Shown: piece by piece, positions 10,747-18,451 of the stretch | Layout of the letters: each line of letters starts with the position of its first letter | Position numbering within the stretch: the stretch's first letter is position 1 | Assembly: GCA_016892645.1 (NCBI GenBank) | Contig: JAFEMX010000001.1 | Location: forward strand, 186,001 to 250,000 | Length of the DNA: 64,000 nt | Source: Micrococcaceae bacterium RIT 802 | GTDB taxonomy: Bacteria; Actinomycetota; Actinomycetes; Actinomycetales; Micrococcaceae | Direction: 5' to 3' | Made by a program: the position numbers and the translations under genes | Notes under the pieces: generated by a model | What the model saw: the letters and a program-made list of their open reading frames with translations, nothing else | Databases searched by the model: none | What the model was told of the DNA's origin: nothing

Positions 10747-13700
10747 CTATTCCGTTCCGGGGTTCAGGTACGTCTGGATCGTCTGCACCGGTCGACCGGT
10801 CTGCACCAGCTGGCCCCGGCCCGGAGGCAGCGGCCGGGCACGGATGTTGTTGATCAGCCCGCCCTCGGAGCGGTCCCCGCTCATGATCAGTGCGGCGGTG
10901 CCGGCGTCGCGGAGCGTGGAGAAGAACGACTCGTACATGCCGCGGCTGGCACTGCGGACCTTTCGGGTGAGGATGACGTGCAAGTCCAGCTCGTCGGCCA
11001 TGGGCAGGTAGTTCGTGAGCCGGCCCAGGGGGGAGGAACCGCTGGCCGTGAGCACGTCGTAGTCATCGGCCAGGATGACCAGCTTCGCCTTGCTGGGCTG
11101 GTGCTCGTCGTCGCCGCCGGTGGTGCGCAGCTGCAACTCGGCCGCCATGGCCGCCGAAAGCTGTTCGCCGACGATGGCGCTGCCGGCATATCCGCCCAGG
11201 TAGTCATCGGGAACGACGTCGTCGAGTCCCTTGCGCGGGTCGTACACCCCGAAGAGCAGCTCATCGGGGGTGTGCTGCGATACCAGGGTGGCGATGATGT
11301 TGCGGAGGATGTTCGACTTGCCGGTCTCCTCGTCGCCCAGCAGGATCAGGTGCCGGTCCTTGGACTGCAGATCCAGCACGTGGTCGCCCAGGTCCGCTTC
11401 GCGCAGGCCCAGCGCGAAGTGCCCGGGGCGACGCGGCACCGGCGCCTGGTCCCAACCGACGCTGGCGGGCAGGACGCGGACCTTCATGGCCTTTTCGCTG
11501 GTGTGCCCGGCGACCTGGGCGACCAGGTCGCGGAGTCCGTCGGACATGTCCTCGACATCGTCGCTGCCATCGATCCGGGGGAGGGCGACATGGCCGATCA
11601 GCTTGCGGTCCGACAGGGCGCGGCCCGGGGCCTCCGGGTTCACGCCGGGAGCGACCTTCCGGTCGATCTGCGAGTCAGTGGGTTCGGCCAGGGCCGTCTC
11701 GATCTTGTTGCCGAAGAAGCCCTGTTGCGCCATGCGCAGCTCGGCGTTGCGGTTCAGCGTGGTGACGACGTGGATGCCGTAGCCGCCGCCGCGCATGATC
11801 AGTGCGTTGACGCTTTCGCGGATCTCCTCGAAGTCGTCGGCGATCTGCCCGTAGCCGTCGATCACCAGGAAGATGTCGGCGCTGGGCAGCTCGGACAACC
11901 GCCCTTCGGCGTGCATGCGCCGCATGGTGGATTGCGAATCGATCTGATGGTTTTCGAACACCCGTTCCCGCACGAGCAGCATGCCCATCAGCTCCTCGAC
12001 GGTGCGTCGGACGACTTCGCGGTTGGTGCGGATGGCGATGCCGCCTACATGGGGCAGGCCGTTGAGCGGAAGCAGGGCCGAACCGAGAAGGTCGATGCAG
12101 TAGATGCCGACCTCCTTCGGCGAATGGGTCAGGGCCATCGAGGTGACCACGGTGCGCAGCAGGGTGCTCTTTCCCGATTGCGGGCCGCCGGTGATCATGA
12201 GGTTTCCGCCGCCGGCGGTGAAGTCGATTTCCCAGAGGCCCTGCCATTGCTTGGCCGGATCATCGAGCAGGCCGATGGGGATGCGCAGCTTGCCGCCGGC
12301 TCCGAGTTCCAGACCGTGTTCACCGGGGTGCACCCCTCCGGCAGCCGCGTCCAGGGAGATGGCCGCCGGCAGCGGCGGCAACCAGATCTCCTGCACCGAG
12401 CGCGGGAAGGAACGCAGCGTGTCCATCAAGGTGGACATCACGGTCGGGCCCGTCGTGCGCTTCGCGGCTTTGTCCTTCGGGCCGGAGGAGGCACCGTCGT
12501 CGTTCCCCGCAGTTTCCCCGCCGGCGTAGCGGGGGATGGGCACGACGTCGGCCACCTCGAGGGGGGCTTGTTCGTCGGGTTCCTCTTCCTGCACATCCGC
12601 CAGGGGGCCGGAGACATAGCCGGCCTTGAAGCGGGTGTACACGGTGGTGTCGACCTTGAGGTATCCATACCCGGGGACCGGGGGCAGGTGGAACGCGTCG
12701 GGGGTGTCCAGGACCGTGCGGGACTCGGACTCCGAGAGCGTGCGCAGCCCCAGACGGTAGGACAAGTAGGTTTCCAGCCCCTTGAGCTTGCCGGACTCGA
12801 CGCGCTGGCTGCTCAGCAGCAGGTGGACGCCGATCGAGCGGCCGATGCGGCCGATGGACAGGAACAGGTCGATGAAGTCCGGGCGTGCGGTGAGCAGCTC
12901 GCCGAACTCGTCGATGATCACCACCAGGTGGGGCAGCGGTTCCATGTCCTCGCCCCGGGCGAGCCGCTCCTTGCGATGGACCTGGTAGTCGGTGATGTTG
13001 GCGATGTTGCCGGCCGCCTTGAGCACTTCCTGGCGGCGCAGGATCTCGCCGTTGAGGCTGGCGTAGACGCGTTCGACCAGGGAGAGGTCATCGGAGAGGT
13101 TCGTGATGATGCCCGTGACCTGGGGTGCCCCTTCGAACGGGGCAAAGGTGGCACCGCCCTTGAAGTCGACGAGGACCATGGCCAGCATGTCGGGCGAATG
13201 GGTGGCCAGCAGGCCGAAGACGAGGGAGCGCAGCATCTCCGATTTGCCGGAACCGGTTGCCCCCACGCACAGCCCGTGGGGGCCCATGCCGAACTGGGCG
13301 GATTCCTTCAGGTCCAGGACCGCGGGCCGGCCTGCATCGTCGGGTCCCAGGGGGATGCGCAGGAACTCGGCGTCGCCGCGCGGTTTCCACGTGCGCTCGA
13401 TGTCGGCGCGGCTGAGGTCCGGGGTAAGCCCGAGCATTCCGAGGAAACTCTGGGCGCCTTCGCTGGATCCGCCGTGCTCGAGGGAATCGGCGGAGAGGCG
13501 CAACGGGGCCAGTTCGTGCGCCAGGGCGTCTGCCGTCGCCACCGGGAGAGGATCCAACGTACCCGTCGACACCTCGGGGTGCACGGGGTCGAAGCGGTAG
13601 TCCTGGACCTGGAAACCGTCGGCCGTCTGGGTGATGCGGACGGCGACGTCGCTGGGTTCCTCGCTGCGCTCGTGGACCAGATGGAGGACGGTGAGGCCGA

Positions 13701-14730
13701 CATCGGCGGGGGAGAGGAACCGATCGGCCAGCGGAAGGTCCTGGGACTGGGAGCCATGGGAGTCGGAGACCACCACCAGGCGGGCCAGCGGCTGCCCGGC
13801 CTTCGAATCGACCTTCTTGGCCTCGACGGCGATTTTGGCGCGGCGTTGCAGATCGCCTCCCATGGCCTCGGCCAGCGCGTCGAGGTCGGGGGCGATGCGT
13901 CTCGTCAGCTCGACGCCCGAACTCTGGGACTGGTCCGCCAGATGCGGCAGCCATGTGGCCCACTGCCAGTCGTCCCGGAAATGCTCGGGTGTGCCGATGC
14001 CCAGCCCCAGGTCCTCCGGGGAGTGGAACGCGCAGGCGGAAACGAGCAGGTTCCGGGTGGTTGCTAGGACGAAGTCCCGGTCTCCGATGATGCTGACGTT
14101 GCCCACGGAGTCCAGCGGGATCGTCACCGGCATGTCAGGGCTGGTGGCGAAGCGGCGTTTGAGGATCTCTGCCTCCGCGGCCATGAACGTGTCGGTCTGC
14201 TGCGTGGCACCTGACATCTCACTGACGGAGATGTCCCGGCAGGGACGCTCGCCGGATCCGAGCCTGACGTCGAGGAAGTCCTCGTTTCCGCGCCGGCGTT
14301 CCCAGAGGCGCATGGGCGTGCGGACGATGTCGAACAGGGCCTCGGGGGGTGGCGCGCTTTCGCGGGCCACACCGAGGGCCTCGAGTTCATCGGCGCGCAT
14401 CTTCACGCGGGAGCGCTCCAGATAGCGCATGTAGTTGTCACGGGCCTGGGTCCGGGTCCGGACGGCCTTTCCCCGACTGGAGAACATCATGAAGATGCCG
14501 ATCACCACCGTCAGGATCATCATCAGGGCACCGATGGCAGCGAAAGGGGAGTTGCGGAACATCATCATGGCCGTCATCGACACGGCGCCGCCGAGCATCG
14601 GGACGATCGTCATCAGGTTCAGGCCGGGAGCCTCCCCCTCGACCGGCGGCGGTCCATCGAGTTGGAAGGGGCGGAAGGTCCGCAACGGAGCCGAGGTCCG
14701 CGCGGGGCGGTGGATGATTCTCTGGGACAT
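10747..14730 (-). CDS. eccC: type VII secretion FtsK/SpoIIIE-type ATPase EccC
   Basis: 1327 residues, a full-length fused EccCa-EccCb. Two N-terminal membrane helices (about 38-82) are followed by three P-loop ATPase domains: GATGSGKSEM (about 490) with a VVIIDEFGELL Walker B; GGPQSGKSTLL (about 850) with LVIDGYGQI; and GDEETGKSNIL (about 1132) with VILADDYDVL. Only the first domain has the classical DE Walker B; the other two are degenerate in the catalytic position, as is usual for the substrate-binding domains of EccC. It would drive export of WXG100 dimers at the inner membrane. Its start lies four bases after the stop of the MinD-like gene. Confidence 0.96.
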   Translation of the reverse strand: MSQRIIHRPARTSAPLRTFRPFQLDGPPPVEGEAPGLNLMTIVPMLGGAVSMTAMMMFRNSPFAAIGALMMILTVVIGIFMMFSSRGKAVRTRTQARDNYMRYLERSRVKMRADELEALGVARESAPPPEALFDIVRTPMRLWERRRGNEDFLDVRLGSGERPCRDISVSEMSGATQQTDTFMAAEAEILKRRFATSPDMPVTIPLDSVGNVSIIGDRDFVLATTRNLLVSACAFHSPEDLGLGIGTPEHFRDDWQWATWLPHLADQSQSSGVELTRRIAPDLDALAEAMGGDLQRRAKIAVEAKKVDSKAGQPLARLVVVSDSHGSQSQDLPLADRFLSPADVGLTVLHLVHERSEEPSDVAVRITQTADGFQVQDYRFDPVHPEVSTGTLDPLPVATADALAHELAPLRLSADSLEHGGSSEGAQSFLGMLGLTPDLSRADIERTWKPRGDAEFLRIPLGPDDAGRPAVLDLKESAQFGMGPHGLCVGATGSGKSEMLRSLVFGLLATHSPDMLAMVLVDFKGGATFAPFEGAPQVTGIITNLSDDLSLVERVYASLNGEILRRQEVLKAAGNIANITDYQVHRKERLARGEDMEPLPHLVVIIDEFGELLTARPDFIDLFLSIGRIGRSIGVHLLLSSQRVESGKLKGLETYLSYRLGLRTLSESESRTVLDTPDAFHLPPVPGYGYLKVDTTVYTRFKAGYVSGPLADVQEEEPDEQAPLEVADVVPIPRYAGGETAGNDDGASSGPKDKAAKRTTGPTVMSTLMDTLRSFPRSVQEIWLPPLPAAISLDAAAGGVHPGEHGLELGAGGKLRIPIGLLDDPAKQWQGLWEIDFTAGGGNLMITGGPQSGKSTLLRTVVTSMALTHSPKEVGIYCIDLLGSALLPLNGLPHVGGIAIRTNREVVRRTVEELMGMLLVRERVFENHQIDSQSTMRRMHAEGRLSELPSADIFLVIDGYGQIADDFEEIRESVNALIMRGGGYGIHVVTTLNRNAELRMAQQGFFGNKIETALAEPTDSQIDRKVAPGVNPEAPGRALSDRKLIGHVALPRIDGSDDVEDMSDGLRDLVAQVAGHTSEKAMKVRVLPASVGWDQAPVPRRPGHFALGLREADLGDHVLDLQSKDRHLILLGDEETGKSNILRNIIATLVSQHTPDELLFGVYDPRKGLDDVVPDDYLGGYAGSAIVGEQLSAAMAAELQLRTTGGDDEHQPSKAKLVILADDYDVLTASGSSPLGRLTNYLPMADELDLHVILTRKVRSASRGMYESFFSTLRDAGTAALIMSGDRSEGGLINNIRARPLPPGRGQLVQTGRPVQTIQTYLNPGTE

Positions 14731-14733
14731 CGA

Positions 14734-15810
14734 CTACCGGGCCCCGTTCGCCTGGGAGAGGACGTGCGCGGCCAATTCGGTGGCGGCCTCACGGTGGACC
14801 TGCAGCATCAGGGGCAGCGAAATCGCCGCGCCGGCCGCCAAGTGGCGGTCGTATCCGATGGCATGGGCATCGAATCCGAGCCTGGACAGGCGCCCTGCCT
14901 GGTCCAGCGCCTCGAGCGCCGAGGACCGATCCTGCTGCATGACAAGTACCGTCAGGGGAATGGCGGCCACCGGCGACCACGTTCGCCACGTTGCCAGCGC
15001 AGCCAGCGCATTGTCCATGCCGGAAAGGTTCGAGGGTATGACGAAGACGGCACCATGGCAGTTGGCGAGGGCAGCCTGGGTCTCGGCGGCTTCGAACCCG
15101 GTGGGGCAATCGAGCAGGGTCAGCGGGAAGTAGCGCGAGACCGTCGCGGTGGCCTGGTTCAACTCGGCGCCCGTGGATCGTGAGGAGGCTGTCGCGCGGG
15201 GGCCGGTGGCGTAGAGGCCTTCGGAGGCCTGGCCCAGCATGTCGGCCAGATGCGCCGCCCCCGGCTGGGCCCCGCCCGTCAACTCGGGAACGATCGTGTC
15301 GAGGGCGGGCGCGTGGTCGAGGCCCAAGCGCAGGGACAGGCTTCCGTGTCCGGGATCCAGGTCCAGGACGCAGGTGCTGTCCGGCCGTAGGGCTGAATAG
15401 ACGCAGGCCAACAGGGCCGCCGCGGTGCTCTTTCCCGCGCCTCCCCGGGTGGAGACCACGGCAATGCGCCGCCCGGTCGTGACGGCGGCCTGGACCCCGG
15501 ATGCGTGCTGGCTGGCCACAGTCGCCGGGTGCCGGCCCCCGAACAGGGCGCCCAGGGTGCGCGTCAGGCCGCCCCCGGTGGCCCGGACCCGCGACAGCCG
15601 ACGGCGGTCGTGGTCCAGCGGTGATCCGAGGGAGTCGGGAACGGCGCCGGGCGGGGTGGGGGTGCCCGTCTGCGGCACGTGGCCCGACGACGGGTTGCGG
15701 CGATCCCGGCGGGACGACGGGGACGGGGTCCAGGGATCGTTGACGGGCTGGCCCCACGGATCGAGTTGTTGACCCGGGGTGGCTGCGCCGTGGTTCTGGG
15801 GTGCTGTCAT
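14734..15810 (-). CDS. MinD/ParA-like P-loop ATPase of the type VII secretion locus (EspI-like)
   Basis: 358 residues. The first ~95 are a Pro/Arg/Ser-rich, probably disordered tail (DPWGQPVNDPWTPSP and onward). The ATPase follows with a deviant Walker A, STRGGAGKSTAAA (about 115-127), and DLDPGHGSLSL as the switch-I-like segment. The lysine usual in the first position of the MinD motif (KGG) is an arginine here. A disordered tail plus MinD fold resembles mycobacterial EspI, an accessory ATPase of ESX loci that couples secretion to energy state. It sits between eccD and eccC in one tight operon. Confidence 0.82.
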   Translation of the reverse strand: MTAPQNHGAATPGQQLDPWGQPVNDPWTPSPSSRRDRRNPSSGHVPQTGTPTPPGAVPDSLGSPLDHDRRRLSRVRATGGGLTRTLGALFGGRHPATVASQHASGVQAAVTTGRRIAVVSTRGGAGKSTAAALLACVYSALRPDSTCVLDLDPGHGSLSLRLGLDHAPALDTIVPELTGGAQPGAAHLADMLGQASEGLYATGPRATASSRSTGAELNQATATVSRYFPLTLLDCPTGFEAAETQAALANCHGAVFVIPSNLSGMDNALAALATWRTWSPVAAIPLTVLVMQQDRSSALEALDQAGRLSRLGFDAHAIGYDRHLAAGAAISLPLMLQVHREAATELAAHVLSQANGAR

Positions 15811-15825
15811 GAGTGTTCCTCCGTG

Positions 15826-17178
15826 CTAGAACGTGGCCAGCATTTGGGTGTACACGCCGAAGTACCCGACGAGCAGTGGGATGGTGGCGAGGATGGCCAC
15901 CGTTTCAAGGCGTTCGCAGATCTGCCGGATCCGCGCTTCAACGTGGTCCGGCAAATCGACCGCCAGCCCCAACCCGGTCAGGATCGCGACCACGAAAACG
16001 GCCAGACCCACGATCCAGACCGTCTCCGGGTTCAGCCGGGTCAGCGCTCCCGCCCCGGCAGCGACACCGATCGCGGTGGCGGCATACAGTGCGTATCGTT
16101 CGACCGCCAGGGGGAACGCGCGCGAGCGCAGCAGGGTCGCCACGGTCAAGGCCAACAACAGGGGAAGCGTCCACTTCGGGCTCCTGTCGTCGGCGGCGAC
16201 GAGCCATAGCCCGCCAGCCGTGGATGCTGCGGCCGCCACCGTGGCCAGCGTCAAACCGGAGTGCGCCGATCGAATCGCGCCGATGGCGTCGCGTCGCCAG
16301 ATCGAGGAGCCGTTGGCCCGTCGATCGTCCAGGGTCGACAACCCCGATAACGACAGTGCCAGGGTGGGCAGCAGGCCCAGGGCCAGGACGGAGCAGATCG
16401 CGGCGATGGCGCCGACTCCGACGAGGAGGTCGGCGTCCGCGTCGGCGGCGCCCGATGCCCACCGGGCCAGGGGCAGTGAGACGGCCCAGATGCCCGTGAG
16501 GGCCCCGAGCACTCCGGCTCCCAGCAGCACGGCCCGGGGATGGCGCAGGACAGTGGCCAGGCAGGCGACGAAGGCCGCAGTTCCCGCGGCTGCCAGCAGC
16601 AGGCGCAATGGTGCATCCGCCGGCCAATGGGCCAGGCCGATCATGCCGGCGCCCCAACCGGTGCCCATCAGGGCGGAAGCAACCGGGCGGGACGCCGCGG
16701 CGACGGCGGCGCCCAGGGCCAGCAGGCCCGCGCCGACGGCGAGCATGACCCACCACCGGGCATCGGGCAGGTAGCGCCCGAGGACCAGGTCCAGTGCCAG
16801 CCACAGACCCAGTGCGGCGAAGATCCCGGAGGCGGTGACCAGATGATGCCGGTTCCAGGCACCGCTCACCGCGCGTGATTGCTCCACCACGGTGTCCGAG
16901 ATGTCGTAGACGACGGCGGGGGGCGGGGCCTCGTTGTTGCTGGCCAGGGTGAGCCGGGCGCCGTCGTGCACTTGGGCCTGGGTCAGCGAATCCTGGGCCG
17001 CGATGGGTTCGCCCGAAGCCGTCAACAGCACCTTGGTGGAGACCCCATCGCCCGGGGCATCCCCGAGCAGATCAAGGATCTGGGGCATCAACGTGCCCAC
17101 CGCCTCGGAAGCCGGCAGGAGCAGGTCGGCGTTGCGGCGATCGCCCACGAGGGTGACGCGCGTGTAGGGCTGTGCCAT
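15826..17178 (-). CDS. eccD: type VII secretion membrane channel protein EccD
   Basis: 450 residues. Residues 1-85 form the ubiquitin-like cytosolic domain typical of EccD (TRVTLVGDRRNADLLLPASE, then DGARLTLAS). From about 108 onward the chain is a series of about 11 hydrophobic helices ending at the C-terminus. EccD forms the membrane vestibule of ESX systems. The ATG lies six bases after the stop of the upstream 108-residue gene, and the stop is 15 bases from the MinD-like gene, so the four genes appear to form one operon. Confidence 0.92.
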   Translation of the reverse strand: MAQPYTRVTLVGDRRNADLLLPASEAVGTLMPQILDLLGDAPGDGVSTKVLLTASGEPIAAQDSLTQAQVHDGARLTLASNNEAPPPAVVYDISDTVVEQSRAVSGAWNRHHLVTASGIFAALGLWLALDLVLGRYLPDARWWVMLAVGAGLLALGAAVAAASRPVASALMGTGWGAGMIGLAHWPADAPLRLLLAAAGTAAFVACLATVLRHPRAVLLGAGVLGALTGIWAVSLPLARWASGAADADADLLVGVGAIAAICSVLALGLLPTLALSLSGLSTLDDRRANGSSIWRRDAIGAIRSAHSGLTLATVAAAASTAGGLWLVAADDRSPKWTLPLLLALTVATLLRSRAFPLAVERYALYAATAIGVAAGAGALTRLNPETVWIVGLAVFVVAILTGLGLAVDLPDHVEARIRQICERLETVAILATIPLLVGYFGVYTQMLATF

Positions 17179-17184
17179 GGTGGG

Positions 17185-17511
17185 CTAGCTCCCCATCCTT
17201 CCGGGGGTCGGGACGTTCTCCGGCGCCGCGTGGCGGTCCGGAAGCACGAGGGCATGGGCCGAGCGCTGCTGTATCTGTTCCTGCTGTTGCCGCTTTTGCT
17301 CGGCCTGGGTGGCCAGCAGGTTGGAGACGAAGGAGACGCCGATGCACACGGCGGTGATCAGCGCGGCGGCGACGAGGCTGAACAGGAACTGCTTCGTCGT
17401 GGCCTTCCAGCGGCGTTCGGTGGGGTTCTCGCCATAGAGGAGGGCATCCGTCACCCGATTGCGGCGGACGGCGACCGACTCGATGAGTTGGCTGTCGAAT
17501 TCTGTCGCCAC
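17185..17511 (-). CDS. short single-pass membrane protein resembling the N-terminus of EccB
   Basis: 108 residues from a GTG preceded by GAGGA. The pattern is a basic amphipathic stretch (VRRNRVTDALLYGENPTERR), one membrane helix (FLFSLVAAALITAVCIGVSF), then a Gln-rich helix and a Pro-rich tail. The order basic helix, RR motif, membrane helix is that of the EccB N-terminus. The 400-residue extracytoplasmic domain of EccB is absent, only about 45 residues remaining. It is the first gene of the eccD-minD-eccC operon. It may be a reduced EccB or a distinct accessory subunit; I see no frameshift that would restore a longer protein. Confidence 0.6.
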   Translation of the reverse strand: MATEFDSQLIESVAVRRNRVTDALLYGENPTERRWKATTKQFLFSLVAAALITAVCIGVSFVSNLLATQAEQKRQQQEQIQQRSAHALVLPDRHAAPENVPTPGRMGS

Positions 17512-17704
17512 GTGGTCCTCCCAGTCGGCTGCATGGCTGTTGTGAGTCCATCATGTCAGGTGAATGGATGAAAAGTCGTCGAAACCCCCGGGGATGGGGA
17601 GTTCTCCCCATGGCGGACGCTTGACCGTGTTTGTCGCCGTGGCGTTAGCTGGTGATGAGCCACGGGGGTTCGGAACGACTCCCCACCGACGAAGGGAAGA
17701 GGAT

Positions 17705-18049
17705 ATGAGCGGCAGCTTCAAGGGAAAGATGGACGTCAACGCCATCGGGAACGCGGCGGATCAGGCCAGCGGTTCGGGCGACGAACTGGTGCGCCTCGTC
17801 GAGGAACTGGTCGACGGCGTGGAGGACCTGCGCACGACCTTCACCGGTGCAGGTGCCGTCTCCTACCAGAACTTCATGGTCGAATCGCAGCGGGTCCAGA
17901 AGGACCTGATCACGGCGCTGGGCGGTATCTCGCGTGGCCAGGCCCAGTCCGCGAAGGAATACGTCACCATGGACGACGCTTTCGAGGCCGGCGGTAAGGC
18001 GGCCGAGGGGATTGCGGCCGGGGCCAAGACGGCGAATTTCAAGTTCTAG
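17705..18049 (+). CDS. WXG100-type secreted protein (first of pair)
   Basis: 114 residues, predicted as two long helices around a short turn, with no signal peptide. The turn reads FTG (TTFTGAGAVSYQNF) in place of WXG, a tolerated variant. The ATG at 17705 is set by AGGGAAGAGG just upstream; the open frame reaching back to 17564 is not coding by pattern. It is divergent from the eccD operon and followed by a second protein of the same class, so the two probably form the heterodimeric substrate. The C-terminal tail after residue 90 is Ala/Gly-rich and ends in FKF, with no clear YxxxD/E signal. Confidence 0.82.
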   Translation: MSGSFKGKMDVNAIGNAADQASGSGDELVRLVEELVDGVEDLRTTFTGAGAVSYQNFMVESQRVQKDLITALGGISRGQAQSAKEYVTMDDAFEAGGKAAEGIAAGAKTANFKF

Positions 18050-18145
18050 AGGCTTTTCAGGGCGATCCCCACGGCATCGCCGACGGCGCGATGGCGCCCC
18101 ACCACCAAGACCGGCCCGCACGGGCCACCACGGAAGGAATTGACC

Positions 18146-18451
18146 ATGGCAGCAGGTAACGACGACGTCGTCGGATTCGATAGCGACCACAACTCGCGGG
18201 TAGAAGGCGACATCATCCGCATCGCAGGACGCATCGAAACCATCATCGGCGATCGCGAAGGCCAGGTGAAGTTCGTCAAGGACAACTGGGAAGACAGCAA
18301 TGCCGGTGACACCTATTCCAGCGTCGAGAAGGACTGGATCGACGCGGCCAACGAGACGCTGCAGCTCGTGCACAGGGCACGCAAGCTCCTGGGCGACAAC
18401 GCCGTCACCGCCAAGGACGCCAACGGCAAGGTCGTGAGCATCTGGGGCTGA
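18146..18451 (+). CDS. WXG100-type secreted protein (second of pair)
   Basis: 101 residues, helical, about the size of EsxA/EsxB. The turn carries WED (VKDNWEDSNAGDTYSSV), with the Trp conserved but the Gly missing. The ATG at 18146 is preferred: GGAAGG lies eight bases upstream, while the TTG at 18140 would leave only two bases. It is the likely partner of the preceding gene, 96 bases away. A strong terminator follows. Membership in the family is judged by size, helix pattern, the Trp turn and context with eccC/eccD. Confidence 0.8.
   Translation: MAAGNDDVVGFDSDHNSRVEGDIIRIAGRIETIIGDREGQVKFVKDNWEDSNAGDTYSSVEKDWIDAANETLQLVHRARKLLGDNAVTAKDANGKVVSIWG

What the first reader, a model, noticed from the sequence alone, without database searches (positions are those of the whole stretch)
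10747..18451. Reduced type VII secretion locus without mycosin, EccE or a full EccB
eccC, a MinD-like ATPase, eccD and two WXG100-type genes are complete, but no subtilisin-like mycosin, no EccE and no full EccB are present. A 108-residue protein with the EccB-like order basic helix, RR, one membrane helix stands where eccB would be. Either the missing parts lie elsewhere, or this is a compact actinobacterial variant that works without them.
Basis: partly seen in the sequence, partly recalled or inferred. Interest (0 to 1): 0.6.

Follow-up and report, generated by a model that had tools for sequence, protein, structure and literature searches.

The report
EccB-stub type VII secretion locus
This actinobacterium carries a stripped-down version of the protein exporter that tuberculosis bacteria use, in which one large outer part is reduced to its membrane anchor and two others are missing, and the same compact set recurs in at least nine bacterial families, so it looks like a working minimal form rather than a broken one.

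Summary
Window 10747-18451 carries complete eccC, a MinD-like gene, eccD, a 108-residue one-helix membrane protein (p108) and a divergent WXG100 pair. EccB and EccE are undetectable in the whole genome. No mycosin lies nearby; one mycosin-like subtilase lies elsewhere, but relatives carry it whether or not they have this locus. It is not decay: all 40 loci fetched from the same family (Micrococcaceae) keep p108-eccD-minD-eccC, none of 68 carrier genomes has EccB, and the module recurs in eight further actinobacterial families. Its EccC forms a fully supported branch apart from EccB-bearing systems; Streptomyces harbinensis has both. p108 is most likely the N-terminus of EccB without its ectodomain: among 611 membrane proteins its best non-self matches are EccB N-termini. 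In ESX-5 that part couples neighbouring EccD barrels, so p108 probably holds the EccC/EccD pore together without the EccB/MycP chamber. Published notes on the S. scabies ESX system (FNG and FQA Esx motifs, no EccB nearby) fit this type, so it is partly known, though absent from the T7SSa-j scheme. New are the subtype, the EccB stub, the often degenerate MinD-like partner, and toxin-domain-fused stubs in Actinomadura and Nocardiopsis.

The parts
10747..14730 (-). eccC: FtsK/SpoIIIE-type motor ATPase, 1327 aa, no FHA domain
   Evidence: TIGR03924 723 bits and TIGR03925 610 bits, both above cut-off; 40/40 family loci keep it; tree
14734..15810 (-). MinD/ParA-like protein, 358 aa, deviant Walker A RGGAGKST
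   Evidence: PF01656 E 1e-5; same position between eccD and eccC in relatives; P-loop degenerate in many homologues
15826..17178 (-). eccD: N-terminal ubiquitin-like domain plus 11 helices of membrane-spanning length, 450 aa
   Evidence: TIGR03920 106.9 bits; model pLDDT 85; Foldseek best hits are EccD5 and EccD3
17185..17511 (-). p108: EccB-stub candidate, cytoplasmic helix with RR, one TM helix (about residues 42-62), variable tail; GTG start behind GGAGG
   Evidence: 40/40 family loci; best non-self matches are EccB N-termini; hhalign probability 93%
17512..17704 (.). intergenic region between the two divergent transcription units
   Evidence: sequence; no sigma-70-type promoter match in the region
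17705..18049 (+). WXG100-family gene 1 (EsxA-like, hinge FTG; C-terminal NF motif), 114 aa from ATG 17705
   Evidence: PF06013 32.8 bits; start; alignment
18146..18451 (+). WXG100-family gene 2 (EsxB-like, hinge WED instead of WXG), 101 aa from ATG 18146
   Evidence: NF035935 E 2.9e-14; start; alignment

Best explanation
A complete, ancient and compact type VII secretion subtype of actinobacteria. EccC and EccD form the membrane pore and motor. p108 is the N-terminal cytoplasmic segment plus transmembrane helix of EccB without the periplasmic ectodomain; it clamps neighbouring EccD/EccC protomers at the inner membrane. There is no EccB/MycP chamber above the membrane and no EccE. The MinD-like protein is a cytoplasmic accessory (scaffold or regulator rather than an obligatory ATPase). 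The WXG100 pair, and in some relatives WXG-headed toxins, are the exported substrates. Shown: gene content, conservation, absence of EccB and EccE, separate EccC lineage, p108-EccB profile match. Inferred: assembly, clamp role, MinD role, secretion in this organism.
For: 68/295 sampled family genomes carry this EccD; 40/40 fetched loci keep p108-EccD-MinD-EccC, nearly all with divergent WXG100 genes. EccB in 0/68 carriers, EccE none in 66/68 and marginal in 2, mycosin over cut-off in 0/68. 46 named loci from 9 families and 4 orders: p108 in 42 (3 of the 4 exceptions are cut contigs), EccB in 0. EccC of all 41 variant rows is one side of a 100% branch against EccB-bearing systems; S. harbinensis has both. 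p108 profile: top distinct non-self hits among 611 TM proteins are EccB N-termini, collinear from residue 5; hhalign 93%, 0/200 column shuffles come near. In ESX-5 the EccB N-terminal loop and helix couple neighbouring EccD barrels (PMC8131196) and in ESX-3 they contact EccC and EccD (PMC6986878).
Against: No secretion data for this organism. Most of the p108-EccB profile score comes from the TM helix: with only the cytoplasmic columns shuffled the median score stays at 42 of 51 and 2/200 shuffles exceed the real score. Single p108 sequences hit PF05108 only weakly, 2/30 with best E 0.0056, and Foldseek finds no PDB match for the two-helix model. An unlinked mycosin-like protease exists, scoring as high (234.5 bits) as the eccB-adjacent mycosin of relative G001 (233.9). 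One named variant locus (L122) lacks the partner genes within 10 kb.
Confidence: 0.78

Rival explanations
1. A canonical T7SSa whose EccB and mycosin are encoded elsewhere; the unlinked membrane-anchored mycosin-like subtilase supplies the protease.
For: A subtilase with signal peptide, S8 domain and C-terminal TM scores 234.5 bits to the mycosin model, like an eccB-adjacent mycosin of the same family. A distant subtilisin-type protease was suggested for S. scabies (PMC8401907).
Against: EccB, its partner, is absent from all 68 carriers. By my count, strong orthologues (E below 1e-50) occur in 60/68 carriers and 209/227 non-carriers (Fisher p 0.33), and some carriers (G013, G107, G165) have none. 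It sits among housekeeping genes (enolase, Ppx/GppA).
Confidence: 0.08
2. p108 is an unrelated small membrane subunit, functionally like T7SSd TsdH or T7SSb EssA, not an EccB relative.
For: One TM helix; most of the EccB signal comes from that helix; no Pfam membership.
Against: EccB N-termini outrank all other TM proteins, with collinear cytoplasmic residues. An intermediate p108-like group in Aeromicrobium, Mumia and Nocardiopsis matches both p108 (98%) and EccB (92%).
Confidence: 0.15
3. A degenerating T7SS remnant that no longer secretes.
For: Fewer parts than mycobacterial ESX; degenerate P-loop in many MinD-like homologues.
Against: Intact long ORFs, order conserved across 40 family loci, invariant EccC D1 Walker motifs, and candidate toxin substrates beside the locus in relatives.
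Confidence: 0.04

Closest known systems
Actinobacterial ESX / T7SSa (ESX-4-like)
   Same: EccC without FHA domains, EccD with N-terminal ubiquitin-like domain and 11 helices, WXG100 pair
   Different: No EccB ectodomain, linked MycP or EccE; extra MinD-like gene; separate EccC branch
ESX system of Streptomyces scabies 87.22 (Fyans 2013, as cited in PMC8401907)
   Same: EsxA with FNG and EsxB with FQA hinge, no EccB at the cluster; the variant's WXG100 genes in Streptomyces and Actinomadura have the same motifs
   Different: Not described there as a distinct subtype with an EccB stub and MinD-like partner; the S. scabies locus itself was not fetched here, so identity is inferred
T7SSd (Olsenella, Bifidobacterium; PMC11217815)
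   Same: Actinobacterial, compact, a small one-TM protein (TsdH)
   Different: T7SSd has FHA domains on TsdC, a kinase, the large TsdI and no ubiquitin-like protein; none of this fits here
EspI of mycobacterial ESX-1/ESX-2
   Same: As recalled from general knowledge, a MinD/ParA-like protein encoded next to eccD
   Different: EspI was not compared in sequence here; the present family often has a degenerate P-loop

Membership tests
T7SSa (ESX) | EccC motor of the EccCa/EccCb family | tested here: met
T7SSa (ESX) | EccD with ubiquitin-like domain and 11 TM helices | tested here: met
T7SSa (ESX) | WXG100 pair | tested here: met
T7SSa (ESX) | EccB with periplasmic ectodomain | tested here: not met
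   absent genome-wide and in 68/68 carriers; only a TM stub
T7SSa (ESX) | mycosin MycP linked to the system | tested here: not met
   none at the locus; unlinked subtilase does not track the system
T7SSa (ESX) | EccE (all ESX except some ESX-4) | tested here: not met
T7SSd | FHA domains on the ATPase, TsdI Ig-repeat protein, kinase, no ubiquitin-like domain | tested here: not met
   EccC shows no FHA hit and EccD has a YukD domain; neighbours checked
S. scabies-type ESX | FNG/FQA Esx hinges, no EccB at the cluster | tested here: inconclusive
   hinges FTG and WED in the window, FNG and FQA in most Streptomyces variant loci shown; S. scabies locus not fetched
Functional secretion system | EccC-dependent export of WXG100 proteins | not testable with these tools
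   needs experiment

The most novel reading that the evidence does not exclude
The EccB-stub system is the ancestral or intermediate state of actinobacterial type VII secretion: EccC, EccD and a one-helix clamp formed the first complete exporter, and the EccB ectodomain, MycP chamber and EccE were later additions. The tree was rooted only at the midpoint, so gain in canonical systems and loss in this clade are both open.
Probability: 0.3. Interest if true: 0.75.

Novelty: new variant of a known kind. Interest (0 to 1): 0.55.

Why it matters
MycP and the EccB chamber are regarded as essential to the mycobacterial machine. A natural, widespread EccC/EccD system that keeps only the EccB membrane anchor separates the pore-and-motor function from the chamber function and offers a small, non-pathogenic model for how type VII export crosses one membrane. 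It also adds a subtype missing from the T7SSa-j scheme and suggests that EccB has a separable N-terminal module.

Tried and rejected
EccD has no match on plasmids; the plasmid EccC relatives listed are only 36-40% identical, like canonical ones. The EccD alignment was too diverse for a collection scan, so EccC was used. Single p108 sequences against Pfam gave noise; p108 against PDB sequences gave unrelated TM proteins; Foldseek with the p108 model gave nothing. The idea that the long p108 forms of Actinomadura/Nocardiopsis carry an EccB ectodomain was tested and rejected (hhalign 0.2%): the extra domain is TNT. The first permutation run crashed and was repeated. EccE and EccB own-genome searches had silent controls, so they were rerun with genomes known to hold them. 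The unlinked mycosin-like protease was considered as MycP and judged unlikely. Fyans 2013 and San Roman 2010 are not held. Paper searches found no description of this set as a distinct subtype, but the library lacks most subscription journals.

Full report
Observation. The six genes are intact and form two divergent units: p108, eccD, the MinD-like gene and eccC on the minus strand with gaps of 3-15 bases, and two WXG100 genes on the plus strand. Curated models confirm EccC and EccD. The WXG100 reading frames start at 17705 and 18146, each behind a Shine-Dalgarno-like sequence.

Is anything missing elsewhere? The genome (3.87 Mb, 38 contigs, 100% complete) has no EccB and no EccE, and no second EccC-like system was recognised among its FtsK-type matches (the C5 match lies in a stretch with few clean ORFs and a recombinase-like gene, and was not characterised further). 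The EccB model works: it finds 18 of 296 genomes across the phylum. In the same family only 1 of 295 genomes has EccB (G001), and that genome does not carry this EccD. In G001, EccB and a mycosin are adjacent, so the family can carry the fuller set. EccE is found in 10 of 12 control genomes; 66 of 68 carriers have none and two have marginal hits inside ORFs of about 1200 aa.

Mycosin. A subtilase on contig C35 scores 234.5 bits, below the curated cut-off 278.75. The cut-off alone does not settle it, because the eccB-adjacent mycosin of G001 scores 233.9. What counts is that the subtilase sits among housekeeping genes and that strong orthologues occur in 60 of 68 carriers and 209 of 227 non-carriers by my count (Fisher p 0.33), with none in carriers G013, G107 and G165. 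No subtilase motif set lies in any of the 40 family loci. Three of 46 named variant loci have one within 10 kb, at non-conserved places.

Conservation. EccD of this type is in 68 of 295 sampled genomes of the family, in 19 of 32 genera. All 40 loci fetched have p108, EccD, the MinD-like gene and EccC, nearly all with the divergent WXG100 pair. Named relatives place the family as Micrococcaceae (Arthrobacter, Kocuria) and extend the module to Streptomycetaceae, Microbacteriaceae, Nocardiopsidaceae, Thermomonosporaceae, Kribbellaceae, Dermabacteraceae, Dermacoccaceae and Propionibacteriaceae. Of 46 named loci with variant EccC, 42 have p108, 43 EccD, 43 the MinD-like gene and none EccB; exceptions L123, L127 and L144 are cut contigs, L122 is a real exception within 10 kb. 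A p108 profile hits 26 of 296 genomes of the class. The 41 variant EccC rows form one side of a 100% SH-aLRT branch, and the 15 EccB-type rows another. Streptomyces harbinensis carries both types (L150, L165), and G400, G421 and G486 have both p108 and EccB.

What p108 is. The conserved core is about 75 residues, and the model shows helix 2-26 and helix 31-87 (pLDDT 81). hhalign against EccB gives 93%, with the match in the EccB N-terminus only; EccC, MinD and WXG100 profiles give under 1% and EccD 12%. Shuffling columns within segments gives at most 27 against 51 (0 of 200). Shuffling the cytoplasmic part alone leaves a median of 42 with 2 of 200 above the real score, so the TM helix carries most of the signal. 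An independent check: among 611 TM proteins from the fetched loci plus EccB sequences, the five best distinct non-p108 hits are all EccB, and the best ones align collinearly from residue 5 through RRRL..A...G into the membrane helix. I take this as good but not conclusive evidence of homology.

Mechanism. In ESX-5 the EccB N-terminal loop and helix run along the inner face of the membrane and couple neighbouring EccD barrels (PMC8131196); in ESX-3 they contact EccC and EccD (PMC6986878). The ectodomain forms the chamber that MycP caps. A protein that keeps only the N-terminal part, in genomes that also lack EccB, EccE and a linked MycP, is what a pore without a chamber would need. This is inference from anatomy. 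The MinD-like protein keeps a P-loop in the window, in close kin and in most Streptomyces and Actinomadura shown, but 23 of 36 aligned homologues have lost GK[ST], so ATP turnover is unlikely to be its universal role.

Substrates. The window has only the WXG100 pair; the WXG hinge is FTG and WED here, and FNG and FQA in most Streptomyces variant loci shown. In an Arthrobacter-type locus the pair is followed by a DUF6507 protein and a 1052-residue protein with a WXG-like head and a nuclease tail, a plausible exported toxin.

Prior knowledge. PMC8401907 states, citing Fyans 2013, that S. scabies EsxA and EsxB have FNG and FQA motifs and that a distant subtilisin-type protease might stand in for EccB. 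This matches the variant and makes it likely that the S. scabies system is a member; I could not read the original or fetch the locus. T7SSa-j (PMC11217815) and the ESX evolution study (PMC4791881) do not describe this set in the text read here.

Verdict. A real, widespread compact T7SS subtype, partly glimpsed before in Streptomyces; new as a defined subtype with an EccB stub. Function in this organism is untested.

Noticed in passing
L131:5325-6287, L135:5309-6340, L155:7661-8638: p108 homologues of Actinomadura and Nocardiopsis carry a C-terminal TNT (NAD-glycohydrolase-type) domain beyond the TM helix (PF14021, E 4e-24 to 6.5e-16), presumably outside the membrane; p108 frames of similar length occur in about a dozen further genomes.
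   Followed up: partly
L055:3993-7590: Beside the WXG100 pair of an Arthrobacter-type locus: a DUF6507 protein and a 1052-aa protein with WXG-like head and Endonuclea_NS_2 tail, a candidate exported toxin.
   Followed up: partly
L200:17771-18067 (own genome, contig C36): A third WXG100 gene of this genome, with a WHG motif, lies beside csrA- and flhF-like genes, that is in a likely flagellar cluster, not near a T7SS.
   Followed up: no
L158, L168, L179, L194: Aeromicrobium, Mumia and Nocardiopsis have a second, weaker p108-like protein on a different EccC branch without detected EccB in the fetched stretch: possibly a second stub-type subtype between this one and canonical ESX.
   Followed up: partly
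   Followed up: no
L051, L054, L069, L071: Several family genomes carry two copies of the compact system, of different sublineages (for example G020, G048, G133, G242).
   Followed up: no
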